Source: Aquabacterium olei (GTDB lineage Bacteria; Pseudomonadota; Gammaproteobacteria; Burkholderiales; Burkholderiaceae_C). From it: a stretch of 64,000 bases of DNA. The first letter of the stretch is position 1. Every line of letters begins with the position of its first letter. Location of the stretch: assembly GCF_003100395.1 (NCBI RefSeq), contig NZ_CP029210.1, positions 1,426,001-1,490,000 on the forward strand, written 5' to 3'. The position numbers were made by a program, and so were the translations under genes. Below are positions 14,438 through 24,832 of the stretch, piece by piece. The notes beneath the pieces were generated by a model, which made no database searches, was not told the DNA's origin, and saw nothing but the letters and a program-made list of their open reading frames with translations.

Positions 14438-14513
14438 TGGCTCCCCGACCTGGGCTCGAACCAGGGACCTACGGATTAACAGTCCGGCGCTCTACCGACT
14501 GAGCTATCGGGGA
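14438..14513 (-). tRNA. tRNA-Asn(GUU), copy 1
   Basis: A 76-nt cloverleaf, identical to the neighbouring copy except in the acceptor stem, which is TCCCCGA/TCGGGGA: a T-A pair has become C-G at the fourth pair, a compensated change. First gene of the pair, transcribed from the promoter at about 14579. Confidence 0.96.
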
Positions 14514-14678: not shown

Positions 14679-16937
14679 TCAGAAGTCGATCTGCGCTGAG
14701 ACGGTCACTGTGCGCCCCGTGATGGGGAACAGATAGGTGTGCCCGCCGAACATCGAGGGCGCCTCACGCCAGCCGCGCTTGTCGAACACGTTCGCCACGC
14801 CCAGCCGCCACGTGATGGTCCGCAGCGCATCGCGGCCCTGCACGGCGCGCACGCCCAGGTCCAGTCGGGTCCAGGCAGGCAGGCGCAGCGAGTTGCCCGA
14901 GTCAACCCACCGGCTGCCCTCGTGCACCACATCGGCCTGCAGTGTCAGCGGCACGGGAAGGCCCCACGTGTGGCTGCCCGACAGCTTCACGGTGCGCTCG
15001 GGCACGTTCACCGGCTGCTTGCCGTTCAAGGCCACCTCCGTGCTGCCACGGCGCTCGGCATCCAACAGCATCGCGCTGGCGGCCAGGCCCCATGGGCCTA
15101 TGCGGCCCTGCCAGAAGCCCTCGACGCCACGGTGGCGTGCATCGCCGTTGTAGCGGAAGGTGTTGTCCACCGTCTCGGCCAGCGGGCGAATCGTCTGGAA
15201 CAGGTTGACGCCCCATTGCGCGACCACCCGTCCGGCGTTGTATTGCCCCTTCACCCCCACCTCGGTCTGGCGGCTCTTCGCCGCCGGCAGGATCTGGCCT
15301 GCGTTCAGCAGGGCGGCATTGCGCGGGGCCGCCTTGGTTTCCACGCCTTCGCCCCAGCTCACATAAGCCTGGGTCTGCGGTGCAAAGGTCCACCCCAGCG
15401 CGGCCCATGGGGTGTTGATCGTCTGGCTGATGTAGGTGTCGTCGTCGCCGTCGGTTTCCTGGCTGTGGCGGCTGAGGCTGGTGTGGCGCAGGCCCAGCCA
15501 GGCTTGCCAACTTGGCGCGAGGCGGACATGGTCCTGCACCGACAACTCGGTCGAGTTCTCCCAGCGGTTCGGGCTGGCTGATTCCATGACCGGGCTCGGA
15601 TCGAAAGGCTGATTGGGATTGATCAGCACATTGAGCGTACCCACGTAGTTGTAGGCCTGCGGCTTGATGGCGGTGCGGTACAGCGAGCGCAACGCCCCGA
15701 AACGCAGGTTGTGCTCCTGATCGCCAAGGCGCACGCGCCCCTCGAGTTGAGCGAGCAGCGACCGAGTGATGCGGCGCTCGTTGTCGGAGCGGTAGTCATA
15801 CAGGTCTACGGATCCGTCGCTCTTGAAGTTGTAGTAGTAGGCGTAGTCCTCCGGCCCCGGACCGACATACTCGTTCCAGCCGAACGGAAACGCCGCCCGG
15901 TCATTCGTCCGCAGATGCTGCTCCCCATACGTCACGGTCGATTTCCAGCCCGCCTGCAGGTTCTGCGTCCAGCGTACCGTGCCCGTGCGACCTTCGAACT
16001 GCACCGGCTGGCTCCAGGGCTGGTTGTTCAGGTTCAGGTTGCGGCTGAACGTGCGCGAGGACGGCAGGCGATCGCCCAGCAGGCTCAGGCCCGCCACGCT
16101 CGGCTGGCTCTGCCAGCTGTCTTCCAGCTCCAGCTCGATCAGCGTGTCGCGCGACACGCGCCAGTCCGTCGCCATCGACAGCAGCCGGCTGTGCCCCTCG
16201 GTGTTGTCCACCTGCGTGTTCAGGCGGGCCACGGCGGCATTCACGCGCAGGCCCAGACTGCGTTCCGGGCCGAACCGGCCGCCGATGTCCACGGCGGCAC
16301 GCGCCTCACCCGCGTCGTTCACCGAGAAGAAGGCGCTGTGCACGCGTCCCTCGGGACGTTTGACCTGCAGGTTGACCAGCCCACCCGGTGCGCTGACGCC
16401 CGCCTGAATGCCACTCGTGCCCTTGAACAGTTCCACGGCCGACTTGTTTTCCAGCGGCAGCCGGGTCTCGGCGTTCACCGGCAGGCCTTCGCGCCGGTAG
16501 TTGTAGGCGTTGTCGAGCGTGAAGCCGCGCACCGTCAGGTAATCCCAGTAGCCCACGGTGTTGTACGAGTCGGTCGTGCTGGCGTCCAGCCGCGTCAGAT
16601 CGGCCAGCCGCGTCACGAAGGCGTCCCGCAGCGCATCGACCGAGAAGGTCTGCGCCTGCGCGGGTGTCTCCCATGCGGGCAGGTCGCCCAGCCCGACGAT
16701 GCTGGCCTTGGCGCTGCGCTTGATCGCCTGGGCACTCACACCCACGGCTTGCACGGTGGCATCGTCGCCCGCTTGCTGGGCCAGCGCCTGCGTCTGCAGC
16801 CCGCAGACGAGGAGGGTGGCGTACGCAATCGTGGTGGGGCGAGGCAGGCGGGAGGCCGCCCGGGCTGCGGGGCGGTCGGCGGAAGCGGAAGTCAGCATGG
16901 CGTGGCACGCGGTGCACCAGGGCACCGCTTCGGACAT
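14679..16937 (-). CDS. TonB-dependent outer-membrane receptor under TPP riboswitch control
   Basis: About 752 residues: signal peptide (hydrophobic core AYATLLVCGLQTQALA), plug domain (about 60-200, with YLTVRGFTLDNAYNYRREGLP and the GTSGIQAGVSAPGGLVNLQVKRP block), then a 22-strand-type barrel ending in the aromatic residue of SAQIDF. By sequence it belongs with siderophore receptors such as FhuE/FpvA. A TPP riboswitch at 17041-17125 lies in its leader, so thiamine or a precursor is the better-supported cargo (inference). A second in-frame ATG at 16898 would shorten the N-terminus by 13 residues; neither start has a good ribosome site. Downstream the tRNA-Asn genes read in the same direction from their own promoter. 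Confidence 0.88.
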   Translation of the reverse strand: MSEAVPWCTACHAMLTSASADRPAARAASRLPRPTTIAYATLLVCGLQTQALAQQAGDDATVQAVGVSAQAIKRSAKASIVGLGDLPAWETPAQAQTFSVDALRDAFVTRLADLTRLDASTTDSYNTVGYWDYLTVRGFTLDNAYNYRREGLPVNAETRLPLENKSAVELFKGTSGIQAGVSAPGGLVNLQVKRPEGRVHSAFFSVNDAGEARAAVDIGGRFGPERSLGLRVNAAVARLNTQVDNTEGHSRLLSMATDWRVSRDTLIELELEDSWQSQPSVAGLSLLGDRLPSSRTFSRNLNLNNQPWSQPVQFEGRTGTVRWTQNLQAGWKSTVTYGEQHLRTNDRAAFPFGWNEYVGPGPEDYAYYYNFKSDGSVDLYDYRSDNERRITRSLLAQLEGRVRLGDQEHNLRFGALRSLYRTAIKPQAYNYVGTLNVLINPNQPFDPSPVMESASPNRWENSTELSVQDHVRLAPSWQAWLGLRHTSLSRHSQETDGDDDTYISQTINTPWAALGWTFAPQTQAYVSWGEGVETKAAPRNAALLNAGQILPAAKSRQTEVGVKGQYNAGRVVAQWGVNLFQTIRPLAETVDNTFRYNGDARHRGVEGFWQGRIGPWGLAASAMLLDAERRGSTEVALNGKQPVNVPERTVKLSGSHTWGLPVPLTLQADVVHEGSRWVDSGNSLRLPAWTRLDLGVRAVQGRDALRTITWRLGVANVFDKRGWREAPSMFGGHTYLFPITGRTVTVSAQIDF

Positions 16938-17040
16938 CGGTCGTCAAACAGGGGGGAGACGAGAAGAGTCCACAGCCCATCACGGGCCTGCGCCAGCCCG
17001 CCACCAGGCTTGCACGGATGTGCACGCCCTGTGGCAGACC

Positions 17041-17125
17041 ACCAGCTTTCCTACGCGAGCATGACCTCGTTCAGGTTCGAAGGGACTCTCTCAGCCCGCG
17101 CCTTGTGTCGGCGGGCACCCCCAGC
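17041..17125 (-). ncRNA. TPP riboswitch (THI element)
   Basis: On the minus strand the conserved TPP-aptamer blocks appear in order with correct spacing: GGGGGTGCC, a stem CGCC...GGCG, GGGCTGAGA, then TCGAACCTGA, GAGGTCATGCTC and GCGTAGGAAAGC. These are the sequence-specific positions of the thiamine pyrophosphate aptamer. About 100 nt separate it from the receptor start, enough for an expression platform (a GCCC...GGGC hairpin lies there), but I could not tell transcriptional from translational control. Confidence 0.9.
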
Positions 17126-17137
17126 GGAAACACGATT

Positions 17138-18235
17138 TTACGCCACGCCCAGACGTTCGCGCAGCAAAGGGCTGGTCGTCGTGTAGAGCAGGTGCTGAGG
17201 AGAGCCCGGATTGAGCGCGGCGGAAGCGGCGTGGGCGGCCATCGTCGCCTCGTGGAAGCCGCACAGCAGCAGGCGCTTCTTGCCCGGGTAGGTGTTGATG
17301 TCCCCCACGGCGTAAACCTGGGGCAGCGAGGTCTCGAAGGTCGCGGTGTTCACCGCCACCTGCTTGCGCTCCAGCGCCATGCCCCACGAGGTCAGCGGGC
17401 CCAGCTTGGGACTCATGCCTTGGCGGATCAGCACGTGATCCAGCGCCAGTCGCACCGCGGCCTCCTCCGGGGTGAGGAGGGTCAGCGCCTGAACCACCGC
17501 GTCGGTGGCGTGCACCTCGGTTGGCATCCCGACGCACAACGCGACACGACCCTGCGCGATCAGCGCACGCACGGCCGCATCCAGGTCGGGCTCGGCCTGG
17601 AACACATCGCGGCGGTGCAGCAAGGTCAAGCGGGCAGGGCGGCGCGCCGGGTCGCTGTCCTCAGCCAGCGACAGCACCGCGCTCAGGGCCTCGTCGCCCC
17701 CACCAACCACGACCACATGCTGCCCGGACCAGGGTAAGGCGCCGGCTTCCGGCACATGGAAGTGCACGTTCACGGCATCCTGCAGCCCGGGCAGATTCAG
17801 GCTGCGCGGCACGAAGGCACCGGCGCCCGCGGCCACGAAGACGGCGCGGGCGCGCCATTGCTGCCCGCGGTCAGAGGTGACGAGCCAGTGGCCGTCTTCC
17901 GCGCGCGCCAGTTCGGACACCTGCTGGCCCAGATGCACATTGGCGTAGGGGCTGCTCGGCGCACCGCGGTCGGCCGCATCCGCCGAAGTCGAATCCGCGG
18001 GCTGCAGAAACGGCTGTGCCTGCGTGAGCAGCAGGCGCGTCAGTTCTCGGCCGGTGCAGCGCGGCACGCCGGGAACGTCGTAGATCGGTTTGTCGGGGTA
18101 CAGCGCAGCGCATTGCCCCCCGGATTCGGGCAGCACATCGATGACATGGGCGCGGAGCCCCAGCAGACCGAGCTGAAAGACCTGGAACAGGCCCACCGGG
18201 CCTGCGCCGATCACGACCGCATCGGTGTCGGTCAT
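17138..18235 (-). CDS. Ferredoxin--NADP(+) reductase, thioredoxin-reductase-like type
   Basis: A 365-residue flavoprotein: FAD motif VIGAGPVGLFQ (about 7-17), ESGGQCAALYPDKPIYDVPG, NADPH-binding VVVGGGDEALS, and the C-terminal FAD block YAVGDINTYPGKKRLLLCGFHEA. It lacks the CxxC of thioredoxin reductase and matches the ferredoxin-NADP reductase type 2 family. It starts 14 bp behind fdxA, so reductase and ferredoxin are probably co-expressed partners. Two insertions of low-complexity sequence (around 95-115) lengthen it slightly. Start at the ATG at 18235. Confidence 0.87.
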   Translation of the reverse strand: MTDTDAVVIGAGPVGLFQVFQLGLLGLRAHVIDVLPESGGQCAALYPDKPIYDVPGVPRCTGRELTRLLLTQAQPFLQPADSTSADAADRGAPSSPYANVHLGQQVSELARAEDGHWLVTSDRGQQWRARAVFVAAGAGAFVPRSLNLPGLQDAVNVHFHVPEAGALPWSGQHVVVVGGGDEALSAVLSLAEDSDPARRPARLTLLHRRDVFQAEPDLDAAVRALIAQGRVALCVGMPTEVHATDAVVQALTLLTPEEAAVRLALDHVLIRQGMSPKLGPLTSWGMALERKQVAVNTATFETSLPQVYAVGDINTYPGKKRLLLCGFHEATMAAHAASAALNPGSPQHLLYTTTSPLLRERLGVA

Positions 18236-18249
18236 CGCGTGCACACGCC

Positions 18250-18573
18250 TCAGCGGATGAGCTGGTCGAGCTTGCCGACCTTGTCCTTCCACTCGTCGGC
18301 GTCGGGCAGCGGATCCTTGCGCTTGGTGATGCTCGGCCACACCTTGGCCAGGTCGGCGTTCAGCTTGATGTAGCTCTGCTGGTTGCCCGGCACGTCCTCT
18401 TCCGGGACGATGGCGTTGGCGGGGCACTCGGGGATGCAGACGGCGCAGTCGATGCACTCGTCCGGATCGATCACCAGGAAGTTCGGGCCTTCGCGGAAGC
18501 AGTCCACCGGGCACACGTCCACACAGTCGGTGTATTTGCAGCGGATGCAGGCTTCGGTGACGACGTGGGTCAT
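18250..18573 (-). CDS. fdxA: 7Fe ferredoxin FdxA
   Basis: A 107-residue ferredoxin with [3Fe-4S] ligands C9, C17 and C50 and [4Fe-4S] ligands C21, C40, C43 and C46, matching the Azotobacter-type 7Fe ferredoxin exactly in spacing. The C-terminal extension ([25 protein letters not shown]) is typical of the beta/gammaproteobacterial form. It is a low-potential electron carrier in the cytoplasm. First gene before the ferredoxin reductase. Confidence 0.95.
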
Positions 18574-18630
18574 GTCAGGTCTCTTGTAGCGGTTGTAAGA
18601 CGGGCGAGATTTTACCGGCTGGGGCCGGCT

Positions 18631-19458
18631 TCAGCCCTGAGAACCCGATGCGCTTTCGCCGCAGATCGGGATGTGGGTCAAAGGTTCGTCAGGAATATCG
18701 GTGGCGCCAGCCCCCACGATGACGAGCGTTGGTCGCCCGGCATGGATGGCGCTGGCGTCGTCCAGTGTGGCCACGGTGTGCAGACTGTGGCGCATGTCGG
18801 GCCAGCCTGCACGCGAGACCACGCTCACCTCGGTGTCGCCGGGCCAGCCGGCCTCCAGCAACCCTTTCGACAGCGGGGCCAGTTGGCGACCCGCCATGTA
18901 GAACACCTCGGTGTCCGCGCGCTGGCCTGGGCCCATGCCGCACTGCAGGTCGCCCGTGCGTGTCATGGCGGTGGTGAAGCTCACGCTGCGGCCGGAGCCG
19001 CGCCGTGTCAGGGGACGTTGTGTGGCGGCCGCTGCAGCGAGCGCTGACGTCACACCGGGCACCACCTCGGAAGCAATGCCGGCGTCGCGCAGCGCGTGCA
19101 ACTCTTCTTCCAGCCGGCCGAACAGGCTGGGGTCGCCACCCTTGAGCCGCACGACCAGCCCCCGTTCGCCGTGCGTGGCACCCACGGCCAGCGACTGCTC
19201 GACCAGCAGGCGGTTGATCCGCGTCTGACCGTTGAAGTCGCTGCCTTCCTTGCCGGAAAAACCGCGCTTGCCCACGTCGATCCAGTCGGCCTGGGGAGCC
19301 AGATCCCGCAGCGTGGCGTCAGCCAGTGCGTCGAACAGCACCACGTGCGCCTGCGACAGCAGCCGGCTGCCACGCACCGTGATGAGGTCGGCCTCGCCCG
19401 GGCCGGCGCCGATGAAAACCACTTTGGCCGTCTTGAGCGAGCAGGGCTTGGATTCCAC
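18631..19458 (-). CDS. cobA: Uroporphyrinogen-III C-methyltransferase (SUMT)
   Basis: A 275-residue SAM-dependent tetrapyrrole methylase that makes precorrin-2 from uroporphyrinogen III. Motifs: VFIGAGPGEADLITVRG at the start, VVRLKGGDPSLFGR near 105, EVVPGVTSALAAAA near 132 and LTRRG after it. It lacks the CysG dehydrogenase/ferrochelatase domain, so siroheme completion needs a gene outside the window. It is the last gene of the cys operon, 33 bp behind cysN, where it supplies the siroheme precursor for CysI. Confidence 0.9.
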   Translation of the reverse strand: MESKPCSLKTAKVVFIGAGPGEADLITVRGSRLLSQAHVVLFDALADATLRDLAPQADWIDVGKRGFSGKEGSDFNGQTRINRLLVEQSLAVGATHGERGLVVRLKGGDPSLFGRLEEELHALRDAGIASEVVPGVTSALAAAAATQRPLTRRGSGRSVSFTTAMTRTGDLQCGMGPGQRADTEVFYMAGRQLAPLSKGLLEAGWPGDTEVSVVSRAGWPDMRHSLHTVATLDDASAIHAGRPTLVIVGAGATDIPDEPLTHIPICGESASGSQG

Positions 19459-19491
19459 GATGAGAAGGCGCAGCGCGCGTGAAGTGAAAGG

Positions 19492-20817
19492 TCAGGCAGC
19501 CTGGACGAGCAGGGCGCCGCTGGTGCGGTTGGTCGTGGGGTCTACCACGATCAGTGCGCCACCGACACGGTTGCTGGCATAGGGCTCGACGGGCAGCGGC
19601 TGCTGGGTCTGGATCTGCACACGACCGATCTCGTTGACGGCCAGCTCGTGCGCGTCGGTGTCTTCCAGCGTGTGGATGTCCAGCCGGTTGTCGATCGACG
19701 TGATGCGTGCCTGCACCCAGCGGTTGCCGTGACGCACCCAGTACTTGCGACCGACCACGGCGGGTTCGGTGTCCAGCCAGGCCAGCGTCGCGGTGAAGTT
19801 GGCCGTCGGTTTGATGGAGCCCGGCGTGTGGATCCAGTCGCCGCGCGAGATGTCGACCTGGCGGTCCAGCACGATGCCGGCCGACTGGCCCGCTTCGCAC
19901 TGGTCGACCACCAGCGCCGAGTGGCGCACTTCGGCCACGATGGCCGTCTCGCCGCTCGGGAAGATCTGGACTTCGTCGCCGGCCTTCACCGCGCCGTGTG
20001 CAATACGACCCCAGAACGCGCGGTACTGGTGGCCGGTGCCCGAGGCCGAGGCTTCGCCTTCGCCCACGCTGTCGCGCGTCACGTACTGCACCGGGTGCAG
20101 CAGGGCGCCGTCGTGGCGCTCGTCGCTCGGCGGCAGCTGCTCCAGCACCTGCAGCAGGGTGGGGCCGTTGTACCAGGGCCAGTTGGCGCTTGGGGTGGTC
20201 ACGTTGTCGCCGCGCAGGGCCGACACGGGGATCACGCCCTTGTTGACGATGCCTGCCTGCTCGGCAAAGGCTTCCAGCGAGGCCTTCACGTTGTTGAAGG
20301 CGGTCTCGGTGTCCTGCTCGATGGCGTCCAGCTTGTTGATGGCGAACACGATGTTCGGCACGCGCAGCAGGTGGGCCAGCAAGCTGTGACGGCGCGTCTG
20401 GGCCAGCAGCGGCACCGGCGAGGCCTTCCAGTCGATCTTGGTGATGTCGACCAGCACCACGGCGGCATCGCTGCCGGCGGCGGCCGTCACCATGTTGCGG
20501 GTGTACTGCTCGTGGCCCGGGGCGTCGGCAATGATGAACTTGCGCGTCTTGGTCGCGAAGTAGCGGTAGGCCACGTCGATGGTGATGCCCTGTTCGCGCT
20601 CGGCTTCCAGGCCATCGGTCAGCAGCGACAGGTCGATCGGGGCACCGGCGGCGCGCTTTTCCAGCGCATCCAGCTGGTCGGCCAGGATGGCGCGGCTGTC
20701 GAACAGCAGGCGGCCGATCAGCGTGCTCTTGCCGTCGTCCACGCTGCCGGCGGTCAGGAAGCGAAGGGCCTTGTGAGCCAGTTCAGTGCTGGCTTCGTTG
20801 TGGGTCACAGTGCTCAT
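19492..20817 (-). CDS. cysN: Sulfate adenylyltransferase subunit 1 (GTPase)
   Basis: A 441-residue EF-Tu-like GTPase that drives APS formation with CysD. G1 loop TAGSVDDGKSTLIGR (about 22-36), switch DGLEAEREQGITIDVAYRYF, G3 DAPGHEQY, G4 NKLD. No APS kinase (CysC) domain follows, agreeing with the APS-specific reductase next door. Its ATG overlaps the stop of cysD by one base, so translation is coupled. Confidence 0.95.
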   Translation of the reverse strand: MSTVTHNEASTELAHKALRFLTAGSVDDGKSTLIGRLLFDSRAILADQLDALEKRAAGAPIDLSLLTDGLEAEREQGITIDVAYRYFATKTRKFIIADAPGHEQYTRNMVTAAAGSDAAVVLVDITKIDWKASPVPLLAQTRRHSLLAHLLRVPNIVFAINKLDAIEQDTETAFNNVKASLEAFAEQAGIVNKGVIPVSALRGDNVTTPSANWPWYNGPTLLQVLEQLPPSDERHDGALLHPVQYVTRDSVGEGEASASGTGHQYRAFWGRIAHGAVKAGDEVQIFPSGETAIVAEVRHSALVVDQCEAGQSAGIVLDRQVDISRGDWIHTPGSIKPTANFTATLAWLDTEPAVVGRKYWVRHGNRWVQARITSIDNRLDIHTLEDTDAHELAVNEIGRVQIQTQQPLPVEPYASNRVGGALIVVDPTTNRTSGALLVQAA

Positions 20818-21770
20818 CAGAAATAACCTTCCTTCTTGCGGCGCTCCATCGAGGCCTCGGACGTGCGGTCGTCCATGCGGGTGGCGCCACGTTCGCTCAC
20901 GGTCACGTGCAGGGTCTCGGCGACGATGTCGGCGGCGTTGGCGGCCGTCGATTCGACCGGGCAGGTGCACGTCATGTCACCCACGGTGCGGAAGCGCACG
21001 TCCACCGTTTCGACGGTCTCACCTTCCAGCGCCGGCGTCACCTCGGTCAGCGGCACCAGCAGGCCCTTGCGACGGATCACCTGGCGGGCGTGCTTGAAAT
21101 AGATGTTGGGCAGCGGGATGCCTTCGCGGGCGATGTACAGCCACACGTCCAGCTCGGTCCAGTTGCTGATGGGGAAGGCGCGGAAGTGCTCGCCCGGCTT
21201 GATGCGGGTGTTGAACAGGTTCCACAGCTCGGGGCGCTGTTCCTTGGGCTGCCACTGGCCGAAGCTGTCGCGGTGCGAGAAGATGCGCTCCTTGGCGCGG
21301 GCCTTCTCTTCGTCACGACGGGCGCCGCCGATCAGGCAGTCGAAGCGGTTGTCTTCGATCGCTTCCAGCAGGGTCACCGTCTGGTGGCCGTTGCGCGATT
21401 CCAGCGGGTGGGCCAGGCGCACGGTGCCCTTCTTGATCGACTCTTCCATGTGCGCCACGATCAGGCGCTCGCCGATCTCGGCCACGCGCTTCTCGCGGAA
21501 GTCGATCACTTCCGGAAAGTTGTGGCCGGTGTCCACGTGCACCAGCGGGAAGGGCAGCTTGCCTTCCAGCTTGCCCGTGGCCGGGTTCTTCATCTTGAAG
21601 GCCTTCTCGGCCAGGTGCAGCACCACGCACGAATCCTTGCCGCTCGAAAACAGCAGGCCCGGGCGCTCGAAGCTGGCGGCCACTTCACGCAGGATGAAGA
21701 TCGCTTCCTCTTCCAGCGCGTCCAGGTGGCGGTGGTCGACTTCCGCCAGCAGTTGGTTCACATCACTCAT
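20817..21770 (-). CDS. cysD: Sulfate adenylyltransferase subunit 2
   Basis: A 317-residue ATP-pyrophosphatase-fold enzyme forming APS from sulfate and ATP. PP-loop LLFSSGKDSCVVLHLA (about 39-54), VDTGHNFPEVIDFR, and the C-terminal family signature TSEASMERRKKEGYF are visible. Length matches CysD. It follows cysH by 18 bp. Confidence 0.95.
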   Translation of the reverse strand: MSDVNQLLAEVDHRHLDALEEEAIFILREVAASFERPGLLFSSGKDSCVVLHLAEKAFKMKNPATGKLEGKLPFPLVHVDTGHNFPEVIDFREKRVAEIGERLIVAHMEESIKKGTVRLAHPLESRNGHQTVTLLEAIEDNRFDCLIGGARRDEEKARAKERIFSHRDSFGQWQPKEQRPELWNLFNTRIKPGEHFRAFPISNWTELDVWLYIAREGIPLPNIYFKHARQVIRRKGLLVPLTEVTPALEGETVETVDVRFRTVGDMTCTCPVESTAANAADIVAETLHVTVSERGATRMDDRTSEASMERRKKEGYF

Positions 21771-21788
21771 CTTGTTCTCGCTCTTGAA

Positions 21789-22571
21789 TCACTTGTGGAC
21801 GTGCAGGCCGCATTCCTTGGCCTTCTCGTCTTCCCACCACCAGCGGCCGGCACGGAAATCCTCGCCGACGGCAATGGCGCGCGTGCAGGGGGCGCAGCCG
21901 ATGGACGGCATGAACTGGTCGTGCAGCGGGTTGTAGGGCACGTGGTTCACCGCCACGTAGTGCCACACATCGCCCCAGGTCCACTCGATCATCGGGTTGA
22001 ACTTGGCGCGGCCGGCATCGTCCACCTCGCGGTCCAGCATGCCGCCGCGGTTGTTCGATTGCTCGCGGCGCAGGCCGGTGATCCACGCGGTGCGCTCGGC
22101 CAGCATGCGCGCCAGTGGCTCGAGCTTGCGGATGCCGCAGCAGGCCTTGCGCAGGTCGATGCTTTCATACATGGCCTTCTCGCCGTGCTGGCTCACGAAC
22201 TCGACCACGGCCTCGTTCTTCGGGCGATACACCTCGACATGGATGCCGGCGTCGGCGTAGTGCGTCTCGATCGTGCCGATCAGCGCTGCCGTTTCCGGGT
22301 TCAGCATGCCGGTCTCCAGCGTGCCAATGGCGATCGGCAGCTGGTGGCGGGCGATCAGGTCGGTGACGATCATGTCCTCGACGCCCAGGCTCGTGGCCTG
22401 CACCACCTTGCCCGGGTGCTCGAAGGCCGCGGCCTTCAGCAGGGCCACGGTGGCCTGAACCTTGGTCGCGTAGTCGGCGCTCGGGTTGTTGTAGAGGCCG
22501 ATCGCCGATCCGGCGGCAGCCGCAGGCCCGCCCAGCATCGATACGCCTCCAATGGCAGAAACCTCACTCAT
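21789..22571 (-). CDS. cysH: Assimilatory adenylyl-sulfate (APS) reductase
   Basis: A 260-residue thioredoxin-dependent reductase giving sulfite. It carries C144-C145 (KACCGIRK) and C226-x2-C229 (IGCAPCTR), the four ligands of a [4Fe-4S] cluster that marks the APS-using class rather than PAPS reductases of the E. coli type. The catalytic cysteine C254 is in the terminal ECGLH motif. A glycine/alanine-rich leader of about 25 residues precedes the family core. Confidence 0.93.
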   Translation of the reverse strand: MSEVSAIGGVSMLGGPAAAAGSAIGLYNNPSADYATKVQATVALLKAAAFEHPGKVVQATSLGVEDMIVTDLIARHQLPIAIGTLETGMLNPETAALIGTIETHYADAGIHVEVYRPKNEAVVEFVSQHGEKAMYESIDLRKACCGIRKLEPLARMLAERTAWITGLRREQSNNRGGMLDREVDDAGRAKFNPMIEWTWGDVWHYVAVNHVPYNPLHDQFMPSIGCAPCTRAIAVGEDFRAGRWWWEDEKAKECGLHVHK

Positions 22572-22589
22572 CGTGCTCTCCAGTCCGGT

Positions 22590-23096
22590 TCAGGCCGCAC
22601 GGCCGAAGACCGGCTTGGTCTGCTGCACGTCGCCCTGGTAGTGTCCGCGTGCGCCAAAGAAGCTCAGTTGACGCTCCGCAATGCCGCGGTCCTGATCGGC
22701 ACGCAAGACCACGGCATCGAAGCCCGTGCGGGCCATCAGCGGCATCATGTCGACCAGCACGTCGCCGGTGGCGCGCACTTCGCCGCCGAAGCGGTAACGG
22801 GCACGGAGGATGTGGGCCTGCGTGTAGGCGCGGCCGTCGGTCCACTTCGGGAACTGCAGCACGACCAGGTCCAGCTTGGCCAGGTCAGCTTCCAGCACCT
22901 CGATGTCGACGTCGTTGCCGACGATGACGCCAACCGGCTTGTGGTCGGCCGAGCCCTTGGCGGGCCACTGCTCGCGCACGGCGTGCCACTGCGCCAGCGT
23001 CAGCAGGCTGTAGGACTTGACGGGGGGATGCGACATCGGGCCGTCTTCGCCGCCCACGGTGTGCCACTGGTCGTGGTGGGGATCGATGAATTTCAT
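22590..23096 (-). CDS. DUF934 family protein of the sulfate-assimilation operon
   Basis: A 168-residue protein with the DUF934 core: PVGVIVGNDVDIEVLEADLAKLDLVVLQFPKWTDGRAYTQAHILR and RARYRFGGEVRATGDVL, ending near LSFFGARGHYQGDV. The family is nearly always found between sulfite reductase and APS reductase genes in proteobacteria; a small electron-transfer or assembly role for sulfite reductase has been suggested but I know of no proof. Start at the ATG at 23096; it lies 26 bp behind cysI. Confidence 0.88.
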   Translation of the reverse strand: MKFIDPHHDQWHTVGGEDGPMSHPPVKSYSLLTLAQWHAVREQWPAKGSADHKPVGVIVGNDVDIEVLEADLAKLDLVVLQFPKWTDGRAYTQAHILRARYRFGGEVRATGDVLVDMMPLMARTGFDAVVLRADQDRGIAERQLSFFGARGHYQGDVQQTKPVFGRAA

Positions 23097-23122
23097 GGTC
23101 TGTCTCTTTCGCGGCGAGGGGC

Positions 23123-24832
23123 TCAGGCGGCCTTGGCGGTCGTGCGGCGCACGGCGTTGGCGGCGGTCTTGAACGGGTCGATGCCGACGCGCTTGACGGT
23201 GTCGACGAAGCGCTCGTTGGCTGCCCGCTGGCTGCGGTAGGTCTCGATCACGGCCTCGATCACGTCGGTGACCTCGTCTGCCGAGAACGACGGGCCGATG
23301 ACCTTGCCGGCCACGGCGCCCGGCGCCAGATTGGAGCCGTCCGAGCCGCCCAGCGTCACCTGATACCACTCGGTGCCGTCCTTGTCGACGCCGAGGATGC
23401 CGATGTGGCCGCTGTGGTGGTGGCCGCACGAGTTGATGCAACCCGAGATGTGCAGGTCGATGTCGCCGATGTCGTAGAGCTCATCCAGATCCTGATAACG
23501 GGCGATCAGGTCGTTGGCGATGGGGATGGAGCGGGCATTGGCCAGGGCGCAGAAGTCGCCGCCCGGGCAGGCGATCATGTCGCTCAGCAGGCCGATGTTG
23601 GGCGAGGCAAAGCTGTTCGCCTTGGCAGCCTTCCACACGGCAAACAGGTCTTCCTCGCGCACGAAGGGCAGCAGCACGTTCTGGTCGTGCGTGATGCGCA
23701 GCTCGCCGCAGCTGAACTGGTCGGCGATGTCGGCGATCGCGTCCATCTGGGTGTCGGTGGCATCGCCCGGGGCCTGGCCCACGCGCTTGACCGACAGGTG
23801 CACGCTCTTGTAGCCCTGCACCTTGTGGCCCACTACGTTGCGCGCCAGCCACTTGGTGAACTGGGTGCGGTCTGCGTCGGTCGCGTCGGCAGGCAGGCCG
23901 TTGCCGGCGGGCAGGTGCGCCTGCACCGAGGCCGGGAAGGCGAAGCTGGCGTTCACGCGGTCGAATTCGGCCTGCGGGATGATGTGGGCGGCACCGTCCA
24001 CGTCACGCTCAAGGATGTTCTGGAACTCGGCATTGACCTGGTCGAAGAACTTCTGGCCTTCGGCCTTGACCAGAATCTTGATCCGCGCCTTGTACATGTT
24101 GTCGCGGCGACCATAGCGGTTGTACACGCGCACGATGGCCTCGATGTAGACGAGGATCTGCTGCCAGGGCACAAAGGCGTTGATCTCGGTGGCCGTGATC
24201 GGGGTGCGACCCATGCCGCCGCCCACCAGCACGCGGAAGCCCACTTCGCCGGCGTCGTTCTTCACCAGGTGCAGGCCGATGTCATGCCAGGCGGTGGCAG
24301 CGCGGTCTTCCTTGGCCCCGTTCACGGCGATCTTGAACTTGCGCGGCAGGAAGGCGAACTCGGGGTGCAGCGTGGACCACTGGCGCAGCACTTCGCAATA
24401 CGGGCGGGCGTCGATGACCTCGTCTTCGGCCACGCCCACGGTCGCGTCGGCCGTGATGTTGCGGATGCAGTTGCCCGAGGTCTGGATGCCGTGCATGTTG
24501 ACTTCGGCCAGCAGCTCCATCACGTCGGCGGCCTTGGCCAGCGGAATCCAGTTGTACTGAACGTTCTGGCGGGTCGTGAAGTGGGCATAGCCGCGGTCGA
24601 ACTCGCGCGCGATGCGCGCCAGCTGGCGGATCTGTTTCGACGACATCTCGCCATAGGGCACAGCCACGCGCAGCATTGGCGCATGGCGCTGGATGTACCA
24701 GCCGTTCTGCAGGCGCAGAGGGCGGAATTCTTCGTCGCCCAGCTTGCCCGCGAGGTTGCGCTCGAGCTGGTCGCGAAATTGCGCCGCGCGCTGGCGGACA
24801 AACTGTTTATCAAACTCGGTATATTGATACAT
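23123..24832 (-). CDS. cysI: Siroheme sulfite reductase hemoprotein
   Basis: A 569-residue nitrite/sulfite reductase. The [4Fe-4S]-siroheme ligands are C422, C428 (ACPGGDFC) and C465, C469 (SGCINSC). Substrate-side residues in HFTTRQNVQYNWI and TSGNCIRNITAD are also present. It reduces sulfite to sulfide by six electrons; no CysJ flavoprotein lies in the window, so the donor may be ferredoxin or another reductase. Cysteine assimilation rather than nitrite is inferred from the operon. Confidence 0.92.
   Translation of the reverse strand: MYQYTEFDKQFVRQRAAQFRDQLERNLAGKLGDEEFRPLRLQNGWYIQRHAPMLRVAVPYGEMSSKQIRQLARIAREFDRGYAHFTTRQNVQYNWIPLAKAADVMELLAEVNMHGIQTSGNCIRNITADATVGVAEDEVIDARPYCEVLRQWSTLHPEFAFLPRKFKIAVNGAKEDRAATAWHDIGLHLVKNDAGEVGFRVLVGGGMGRTPITATEINAFVPWQQILVYIEAIVRVYNRYGRRDNMYKARIKILVKAEGQKFFDQVNAEFQNILERDVDGAAHIIPQAEFDRVNASFAFPASVQAHLPAGNGLPADATDADRTQFTKWLARNVVGHKVQGYKSVHLSVKRVGQAPGDATDTQMDAIADIADQFSCGELRITHDQNVLLPFVREEDLFAVWKAAKANSFASPNIGLLSDMIACPGGDFCALANARSIPIANDLIARYQDLDELYDIGDIDLHISGCINSCGHHHSGHIGILGVDKDGTEWYQVTLGGSDGSNLAPGAVAGKVIGPSFSADEVTDVIEAVIETYRSQRAANERFVDTVKRVGIDPFKTAANAVRRTTAKAA

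What the first reader, a model, noticed from the sequence alone, without database searches (positions are those of the whole stretch)
17041..17125. TPP riboswitch in front of a siderophore-type TonB receptor
The minus strand shows all conserved TPP-aptamer blocks (GGGGTGCC, CTGAGA, GAACCTGA, GCGTAGGAAAG) directly upstream of the TonB-dependent receptor at 16937-14679. By homology the receptor would be annotated as a siderophore transporter. The riboswitch predicts thiamine or a thiamine precursor as cargo. A TonB thiamine receptor is known in Bacteroides; a proteobacterial FhuE/FpvA-like one would be a separate origin.
Basis: partly seen in the sequence, partly recalled or inferred. Interest (0 to 1): 0.75.

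Follow-up and report, generated by a model that had tools for sequence, protein, structure and literature searches.

The report
Riboswitch-controlled outer-membrane vitamin B1 importer
A vitamin-B1-sensing RNA switch sits in front of a gene that would normally be labelled an iron-siderophore receptor, and comparison across related bacteria indicates that the gene is probably an outer-membrane importer for vitamin B1, which many of these bacteria seem unable to make themselves.

Summary
Rfam TPP (RF00059) matches window 17132-17031(-) at 64.0 bits (cut-off 54.3, E 3e-10), 93 nt before the TonB-dependent receptor 16937-14679(-). The link is general: of 150 sampled genomes of the same GTDB family 75 hold an orthologue, and in 73 of 75 a same-strand TPP match (53 above the cut-off) lies within 400 nt upstream. 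The other two are an aptamer cut by a contig end and a receptor that closes a TPP-led thi operon. Of the 75 receptor genomes 42 lack thiC, thiG and thiE, against 7 of 75 without the receptor. Without ThiE precursors are useless, so the cargo is best read as intact thiamine or its phosphates, shut off when TPP is plentiful. The kind is known: TPP-led TonB receptors are in print for Shewanella SO2715 (PMC2659441), a Variovorax operon (PMC10409787) and Bacteroides (PMC5613172). Added here: family-wide constancy and genotype evidence on cargo. Transport itself, and the inner-membrane partner in most genomes, remain unshown.

The parts
17031..17132 (-). TPP riboswitch aptamer (RF00059), full-length match
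   Evidence: 64.0 bits, gathering 54.3, E 3e-10; core blocks invariant in 8 aligned loci
17135..17140 (-). -10-like box TAAAAT, overlapping the stop codon of the upstream gene; inferred own promoter of the riboswitch transcript
   Evidence: read; TAnAAT occurs within 60 nt upstream of the aptamer in 41 of 72 orthologous loci, mononucleotide-shuffle mean 1.3, largest 4; the consensus scan found no full sigma-70 promoter
16938..17030 (-). leader between aptamer and start codon; expression platform not resolved
   Evidence: no terminator-like site; fold of 16880-17134 not clearly more stable than shuffles, z -1.25
14679..16937 (-). TonB-dependent outer-membrane receptor, 752 aa, proposed thiamine importer
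   Evidence: PF07715 plug at residues 90-186; TIGR01783 221.8 bits, cut-off 223.5; barrel-type strands from residue 199 to 751, plug poorly modelled; orthologue in 75 of 150 family genomes
17138..18241 (-). FAD/NAD(P) oxidoreductase (thioredoxin-reductase-like), upstream neighbour, not thought to be part of the TPP unit
   Evidence: PF07992; a homologue lies in the fetched stretch before the receptor in 50 of 74 orthologous loci
18250..18573 (-). ferredoxin-like protein, 107 aa; conserved neighbour
   Evidence: ORF; homologue in 35 of 74 loci; named by eye from its cysteine pattern, the Pfam call failed
14441..14513 (-). tRNA (anticodon GTT by eye) downstream of the receptor
   Evidence: 68.6 bits; a tRNA follows the receptor in 7 of 7 related loci

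Best explanation
The locus is a one-gene TPP riboswitch unit. When cytoplasmic thiamine diphosphate (TPP) is high it binds the aptamer at the start of the leader and lowers expression of the receptor. When TPP is low, the plug-gated, TonB-driven barrel is made and imports intact thiamine (or thiamine phosphates) across the outer membrane. The protein belongs to a clade of siderophore-type TonB receptors, seen mainly in the window's GTDB family, whose examined members are essentially all under TPP control. In this genome, which also has thiC, thiO-like, thiG and a thiD-thiE fusion behind its second TPP riboswitch, uptake would spare synthesis; in many relatives without synthesis genes it would be a main way in. 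SHOWN by computation: aptamer, linkage, constancy, association with missing biosynthesis genes. INFERRED: ligand response, off-switch direction, cargo, TonB dependence. Whether control is over translation or Rho-dependent termination is undecided.
For: RF00059 64.0 bits. In 73 of 75 receptor genomes a same-strand TPP match (E<=1e-3 per genome; 53 of the 73 at or above 54.3 bits) lies -11 to 400 nt before the receptor match. In G019 the 3' half of the aptamer stands at the contig end; in G122 the receptor follows thiG and thiE behind a TPP match. 7 of 7 named relatives have it above the cut-off. The single further hit in a 274-genome class sample (at most 3 candidates scored per genome; G313, 32% identity, another family) has a TPP match of 67.7 bits about 120 nt upstream. 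None of the 11 other plug-bearing receptors of this genome lies near either of its two TPP matches. Cargo: thiC, thiG, thiE all missing in 42 of 75 receptor genomes against 7 of 75 without (Fisher p 9e-10, odds 12); the label needs 17 changes on the receptor tree, at least 13 by starred branches. ThiL is strong (263 bits or more) in 39 of the 42. In auxotroph G031 the second TPP match leads a ThiB (317 bits, over its cut-off), a ThiP-like permease and an ABC ATPase. Tree: 75 orthologues plus G313 form one clade against 11 own paralogues, FhuA, FhuE and BtuB, FastTree support 0.997.
Against: No transport, binding or expression data. Only 2 of 75 receptor genomes have a ThiB-type binding protein (TIGR01254, E<=1e-30), so the inner-membrane step is unidentified in most, this genome included. 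Fisher's test ignores shared ancestry, and the receptor tree need not be the species tree. The protein scores close to the siderophore-receptor cut-off. 20 of the 73 linked TPP matches are below the gathering score, down to 31.3 bits. Three of 42 auxotrophs lack a strong ThiL match (G083, G100, G123). In G056, an auxotroph, the receptor is split, and in G075 it has an in-frame stop. No expression platform could be shown. 7 genomes lack both synthesis genes and this receptor, so other routes exist.
Confidence: 0.84

Rival explanations
1. The receptor imports a thiamine precursor or breakdown product (HMP, thiazole, FAMP) rather than thiamine.
For: 32 of 75 receptor genomes, this one included, have thiC, thiG and thiE and could use precursors. 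A CytX-like (putative HMP) permease follows the TPP match in G071 (TIGR02358, 220 bits, under its cut-off) and, by eye, in G122.
Against: 42 of 75 have no thiE, thiC or thiG match, so precursors would be useless to them. TPP-led ThiB-type importer genes in auxotroph G031.
Confidence: 0.06
2. It is a true ferric-siderophore receptor; the riboswitch is a relic or acts on something else.
For: TIGR01783 221.8 bits; nearest solved structures are ferric-siderophore receptors such as FemA, BauA, FoxA, FhuA.
Against: The TPP link is kept in 73 of 75 genomes and in a 32% identical relative outside the family, too constant for a relic. No Fur-box-like site (recalled 19-bp consensus, up to 3 mismatches) in the window (a weak test).
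Confidence: 0.04
3. The natural cargo is a phosphorylated form (TMP or TPP) rather than free thiamine (a sub-case of the best explanation).
For: PMC7193533 notes that TonB receptors have been implicated in TPP import through comparative genomics (passage seen). ThiL, strong in 39 of 42 auxotrophs, would complete TMP to TPP.
Against: Nothing here distinguishes the forms; no thiamine kinase survey was made.
Confidence: 0.15

Closest known systems
Shewanella SO2715, TonB-dependent receptor with RF00059 TPP riboswitch (PMC2659441, table passage seen; in a siderophore-type cluster with thiamin among its substrates in PMC3400609, passage seen)
   Same: Siderophore-type TonB receptor of a proteobacterium behind a TPP riboswitch
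   Different: Other bacterial family; sequence not compared here; no auxotrophy survey in the passages seen
Variovorax TPP-led thiamine operon with a TonB receptor-like protein and a thiamine permease (PMC10409787, one section read)
   Same: Same GTDB family by recall, same regulation; the G122 and G071 arrangements look like it
   Different: There the receptor lies in the biosynthesis operon; in the window it is a single gene with its own riboswitch. Sequence not compared
Bacteroides thetaiotaomicron OMthi BT2390 (PMC5613172, passages seen)
   Same: TPP-riboswitch-controlled TonB thiamine transporter with genetic evidence (in a biosynthesis-deleted strain its loss raises the thiamine EC50 from 2.8 to 15.8 nM)
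   Different: Bacteroidota; in one operon with pnuT and tnr3 in most gut genomes surveyed there; PMC3400609 puts Bacteroidota receptors annotated fibronectin/thiamin in a separate cluster; homology not tested here
'omr1' of plankton surveys (PMC10881298, PMC12442306, passages seen)
   Same: Putative TonB-dependent B1 receptor, with a nearby TPP riboswitch in SAR86 and Flavobacteriales clusters (PMC10881298)
   Different: Specificity called potential or unclear there; other taxa; not compared in sequence
Ferric-siderophore receptors FemA, BauA, FoxA, FhuA
   Same: Fold and sequence family
   Different: Iron-chelate cargo (entry titles and general knowledge); none of the 11 own paralogues is near a TPP match

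Membership tests
TPP riboswitch (RF00059) | Score above Rfam gathering threshold with conserved core | tested here: met
   64.0 against 54.3 bits, model 1-105
TPP riboswitch (RF00059) | TPP binding and TPP-dependent expression | not testable with these tools
   needs in-line probing or a reporter
TonB-dependent outer-membrane transporter | Plug domain plus large C-terminal beta-barrel | tested here: met
   PF07715 30.6 bits, cut-off 23.9; beta-strands from residue 199 to the C terminus in the model and Foldseek hits to solved receptors; strands were not counted against the canonical 22, and the plug is under pLDDT 50
TonB-dependent siderophore receptor (TIGR01783) | Score above NCBIfam cut-off | tested here: not met
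   221.8 against 223.5 bits, a near miss
TonB-dependent siderophore receptor (TIGR01783) | Iron regulation and ferric-siderophore uptake | not testable with these tools
   no Fur-box-like match in the window is only weak evidence
TPP-regulated TonB thiamine receptors (OMthi / omr1 type) | Receptor gene directly behind a TPP riboswitch | tested here: met
TPP-regulated TonB thiamine receptors (OMthi / omr1 type) | Required for thiamine uptake at low concentration | not testable with these tools
   indirect support from genotype only
TPP-regulated TonB thiamine receptors (OMthi / omr1 type) | Sequence homology to BT2390 or SO2715 | not tested

The most novel reading that the evidence does not exclude
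A clade of siderophore-type TonB receptors centred on one GTDB family is dedicated to intact thiamine, practically always under TPP control, and stands in for a biosynthesis pathway that is patchily missing (at least 13 label changes on the receptor tree, losses or transfers), so that 'siderophore receptor' annotations in these genomes hide the gene on which B1 auxotrophs depend.
Probability: 0.6. Interest if true: 0.55.

Novelty: new member of a known kind. Interest (0 to 1): 0.42.

Why it matters
Vitamin B1 exchange shapes microbial communities, and a reliable marker for B1 uptake in these bacteria would be useful because the genes are annotated as iron receptors. The auxotrophy pattern turns a vague 'thiamine or precursor' prediction into a test with a definite expected result.

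Tried and rejected
Chance match: rejected (score, conservation, 73 of 75 linkage). Terminator-type expression platform: none found, fold z -1.25, left open. Full sigma-70 promoter: none by scan; only a -10-like box recurs. Fur box: none with up to 3 mismatches in the window (consensus from memory). The long 5' hairpin of many orthologous leaders is not seen in the window (longest stem 6 by that measure) or the 7 named loci (4-5). ThiBPQ as the general inner-membrane partner: rejected, ThiB in 2 of 75 genomes. Structure model: plug (residues 1-192) under pLDDT 50, so no binding-site claim is made. Weaker receptor copies (175-207 bits): those of G013 and G077 have no TPP match upstream; G044 and G145 were not in the two sensitive scans and are not counted. 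Caps: one search scored at most 7 candidates a genome and at most 3; the match lists were cut, best first. The thiC and thiG sets include a few contig-edge fragments (for example thiC of G008, thiG of G041). Papers: Rodionov 2002 (JBC) is not held and is known here only as cited by others. Eight paper searches were answered; in their listings and in the passages opened I saw no account of the family-wide pattern, which is not proof of absence.

Full report
Observation. The whole window was scanned against Rfam: besides three tRNAs there is one riboswitch, TPP (RF00059), 17132-17031 on the minus strand, 64.0 bits against a gathering score of 54.3, E 3e-10, the full model aligned. The next gene on that strand is the 752-aa receptor 16937-14679, 93 nt further on.

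The receptor. Pfam finds a TonB plug (PF07715, 30.6 bits); NCBIfam's siderophore-receptor model scores 221.8 bits, just under its cut-off of 223.5. By sequence the nearest solved chains are FemA and BauA, then FhuA, with FoxA lower down; BauA, FemA, FoxA and FhuA lead the fold comparison. The AlphaFold model is usable for the barrel but not for the plug (pLDDT under 50 for residues 1-192). Where public relatives bear a name it is TonB-dependent (siderophore) receptor or iron complex receptor.

Is the link more than local? Seven named relatives, six of them Aquabacterium, were found in the genome collection, and 7 of 7 have RF00059 above the gathering score directly upstream. In an alignment of eight leaders the core blocks are invariant while the stretch behind varies. 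Then 150 genomes of the same GTDB family were searched with the receptor: 77 have a match at E 1e-50 or better, 75 of them above 250 bits; further separate copies score 207 bits or less. Sensitive RF00059 scans of those 75 genomes and a coordinate comparison show a same-strand TPP match within 400 nt upstream of the receptor in 73 of 75; 53 of the 73 are at or above the gathering score, the weakest is 31.3 bits. The two exceptions explain themselves: in G019 the contig begins inside the aptamer (its 3' half is readable), and in G122 the receptor is the last of a same-strand run behind a TPP match that holds a CytX-like permease and thiO (both by eye), thiG and thiE. A class-wide sample of 274 genomes (at most three candidates scored in each) gave one more hit at E 1e-60 besides the window's genome, in another family (G313, 32% identity, 285 bits); it too has a TPP match, 67.7 bits, about 120 nt upstream. 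The window's genome has 12 plug-bearing receptors and two TPP matches: one at this receptor and one before thiC (over its cut-off), a thiO-like gene and a thiD-thiE fusion (both under their cut-offs), with thiG between. None of the other 11 receptors is near a TPP match. On a FastTree tree with those 11, FhuA, FhuE and BtuB, the 75 orthologues and G313 are one clade (support 0.997).

What does it carry? The same 150 genomes were searched for ThiC (TIGR00190), ThiG (PF05690) and ThiE (PF02581). Taking strong matches and contig-edge fragments as present, 42 of the 75 receptor genomes lack all three, 32 have all three, and one (G132) has thiE only; among the 75 genomes without the receptor 7 lack all three (Fisher p 9e-10, odds ratio 12). 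By the completeness column 38 of the 42 are at least 90% complete. In 36 of the 42 the receptor's switch is the only TPP match; five have two and G019 none. On a quick receptor tree the auxotroph label needs 17 changes, at least 13 by well-supported branches, fewer than the 24.7 of shuffled labels, so it is partly clustered but changed repeatedly; the receptor tree need not equal the species tree. A cell without ThiE cannot join HMP and thiazole (established pathway knowledge), so in these 42 genomes a precursor importer would be of no use, and intact thiamine or its phosphates is the natural reading. ThiL, which makes TPP from TMP, is strong in 39 of the 42. In auxotroph G031 the second TPP match leads a ThiB (317 bits, cut-off 93.4), a ThiP-like permease and an ABC ATPase (ThiP and ThiQ models under their cut-offs); in prototroph G117 a TPP match leads a ThiB and a ThiP-like permease. 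In auxotrophs G134 and G021 the second TPP match (55.2 and 32.6 bits) leads a small protein with a Thiamine_BP domain. Against a simple picture: ThiB-type proteins occur in only 2 of the 75, so the inner-membrane carrier is mostly unknown, also in the window's genome; and in G056 and G075 the receptor is broken.

How it works. A -10-like box TAAAAT ends 2 nt before the Rfam match and overlaps the stop codon of the preceding oxidoreductase gene; TAnAAT occurs within 60 nt upstream of the aptamer in 41 of 72 orthologous loci, against a shuffled mean of 1.3. The transcript therefore probably starts at the aptamer and is independent of the sulfur-assimilation genes upstream (sulfite/nitrite-reductase-like, cysH, cysD, cysN, SUMT, ferredoxin-like, oxidoreductase). 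No terminator-like site, no full consensus promoter and no unusually stable leader fold were found, so translational or Rho-dependent control are both open. The direction, off at high TPP, is inferred from the general behaviour of bacterial TPP riboswitches.

Comparison. TPP-controlled TonB receptors are a known kind. PMC5613172 gives genetics for Bacteroides OMthi (passages). PMC2659441 tabulates a TPP riboswitch before Shewanella SO2715 (passage); PMC3400609 lists SO_2715 in its siderophore-type cluster, with thiamin among the substrates (passage). PMC10409787 describes a Variovorax TPP operon with a TonB receptor-like protein predicted as thiamine transporter (section read). PMC2771747 found predicted thiamin receptors in three separate sequence regions and called the assignment unproven (passages). 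Plankton surveys use 'omr1' as a putative B1 receptor (PMC10881298, PMC12442306; passages). So the finding is a new member of a known kind.

Verdict.

Noticed in passing
orthologous leaders, e.g. L043, L049, L060, L082, L113 (fetched): A strong stem-loop stands between the -10-like box and the TPP aptamer in many receptor leaders: stems of 7 or more pairs in 39 of 72 loci against 6.1 in mononucleotide shuffles; 20 thiC-side leaders picked from the 44 other TPP matches: 4 of 20 against 1.9. The window's leader shows only a 6-pair stem by this measure. It may be a 5' mRNA-stabilising hairpin or part of the switch.
   Followed up: partly
L132:7352-7756(-) (G134) and L130:7670-8098(-) (G021): Small proteins with what looks by eye like a signal peptide and a Thiamine_BP domain (PF01910, 64.6 and 67.5 bits) follow a TPP match (55.2 bits in G134, a weak 32.6 in G021) in thiamine-auxotroph genomes: a candidate TPP-controlled periplasmic thiamine-binding protein.
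   Followed up: partly
L129:1762-5067(+) (G031) and L137:5009-7821(-) (G117): TPP match directly before ThiB (over cut-off) and ThiP-like genes, in G031 also an ABC ATPase; these are the only 2 of 75 receptor genomes with ThiB at E<=1e-30.
   Followed up: partly
window 17138-24832(-): The receptor sits at the end of a sulfur-assimilation cluster (sulfite/nitrite-reductase-like, cysH, cysD, cysN, SUMT, ferredoxin-like, oxidoreductase). Ferredoxin and oxidoreductase homologues precede the receptor in 35 and 50 of 74 fetched loci.
   Followed up: partly
L112 (G080), L113 (G056), L066 (G075): G080 has two receptor copies in tandem behind one TPP match; in G056 the receptor is split into two pieces and in G075 it holds one in-frame TAG.
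   Followed up: no
L138:3900-4733(-) (G116): TPP match before thiM (hydroxyethylthiazole kinase), with thiD-like sequence behind it by eye.
   Followed up: no
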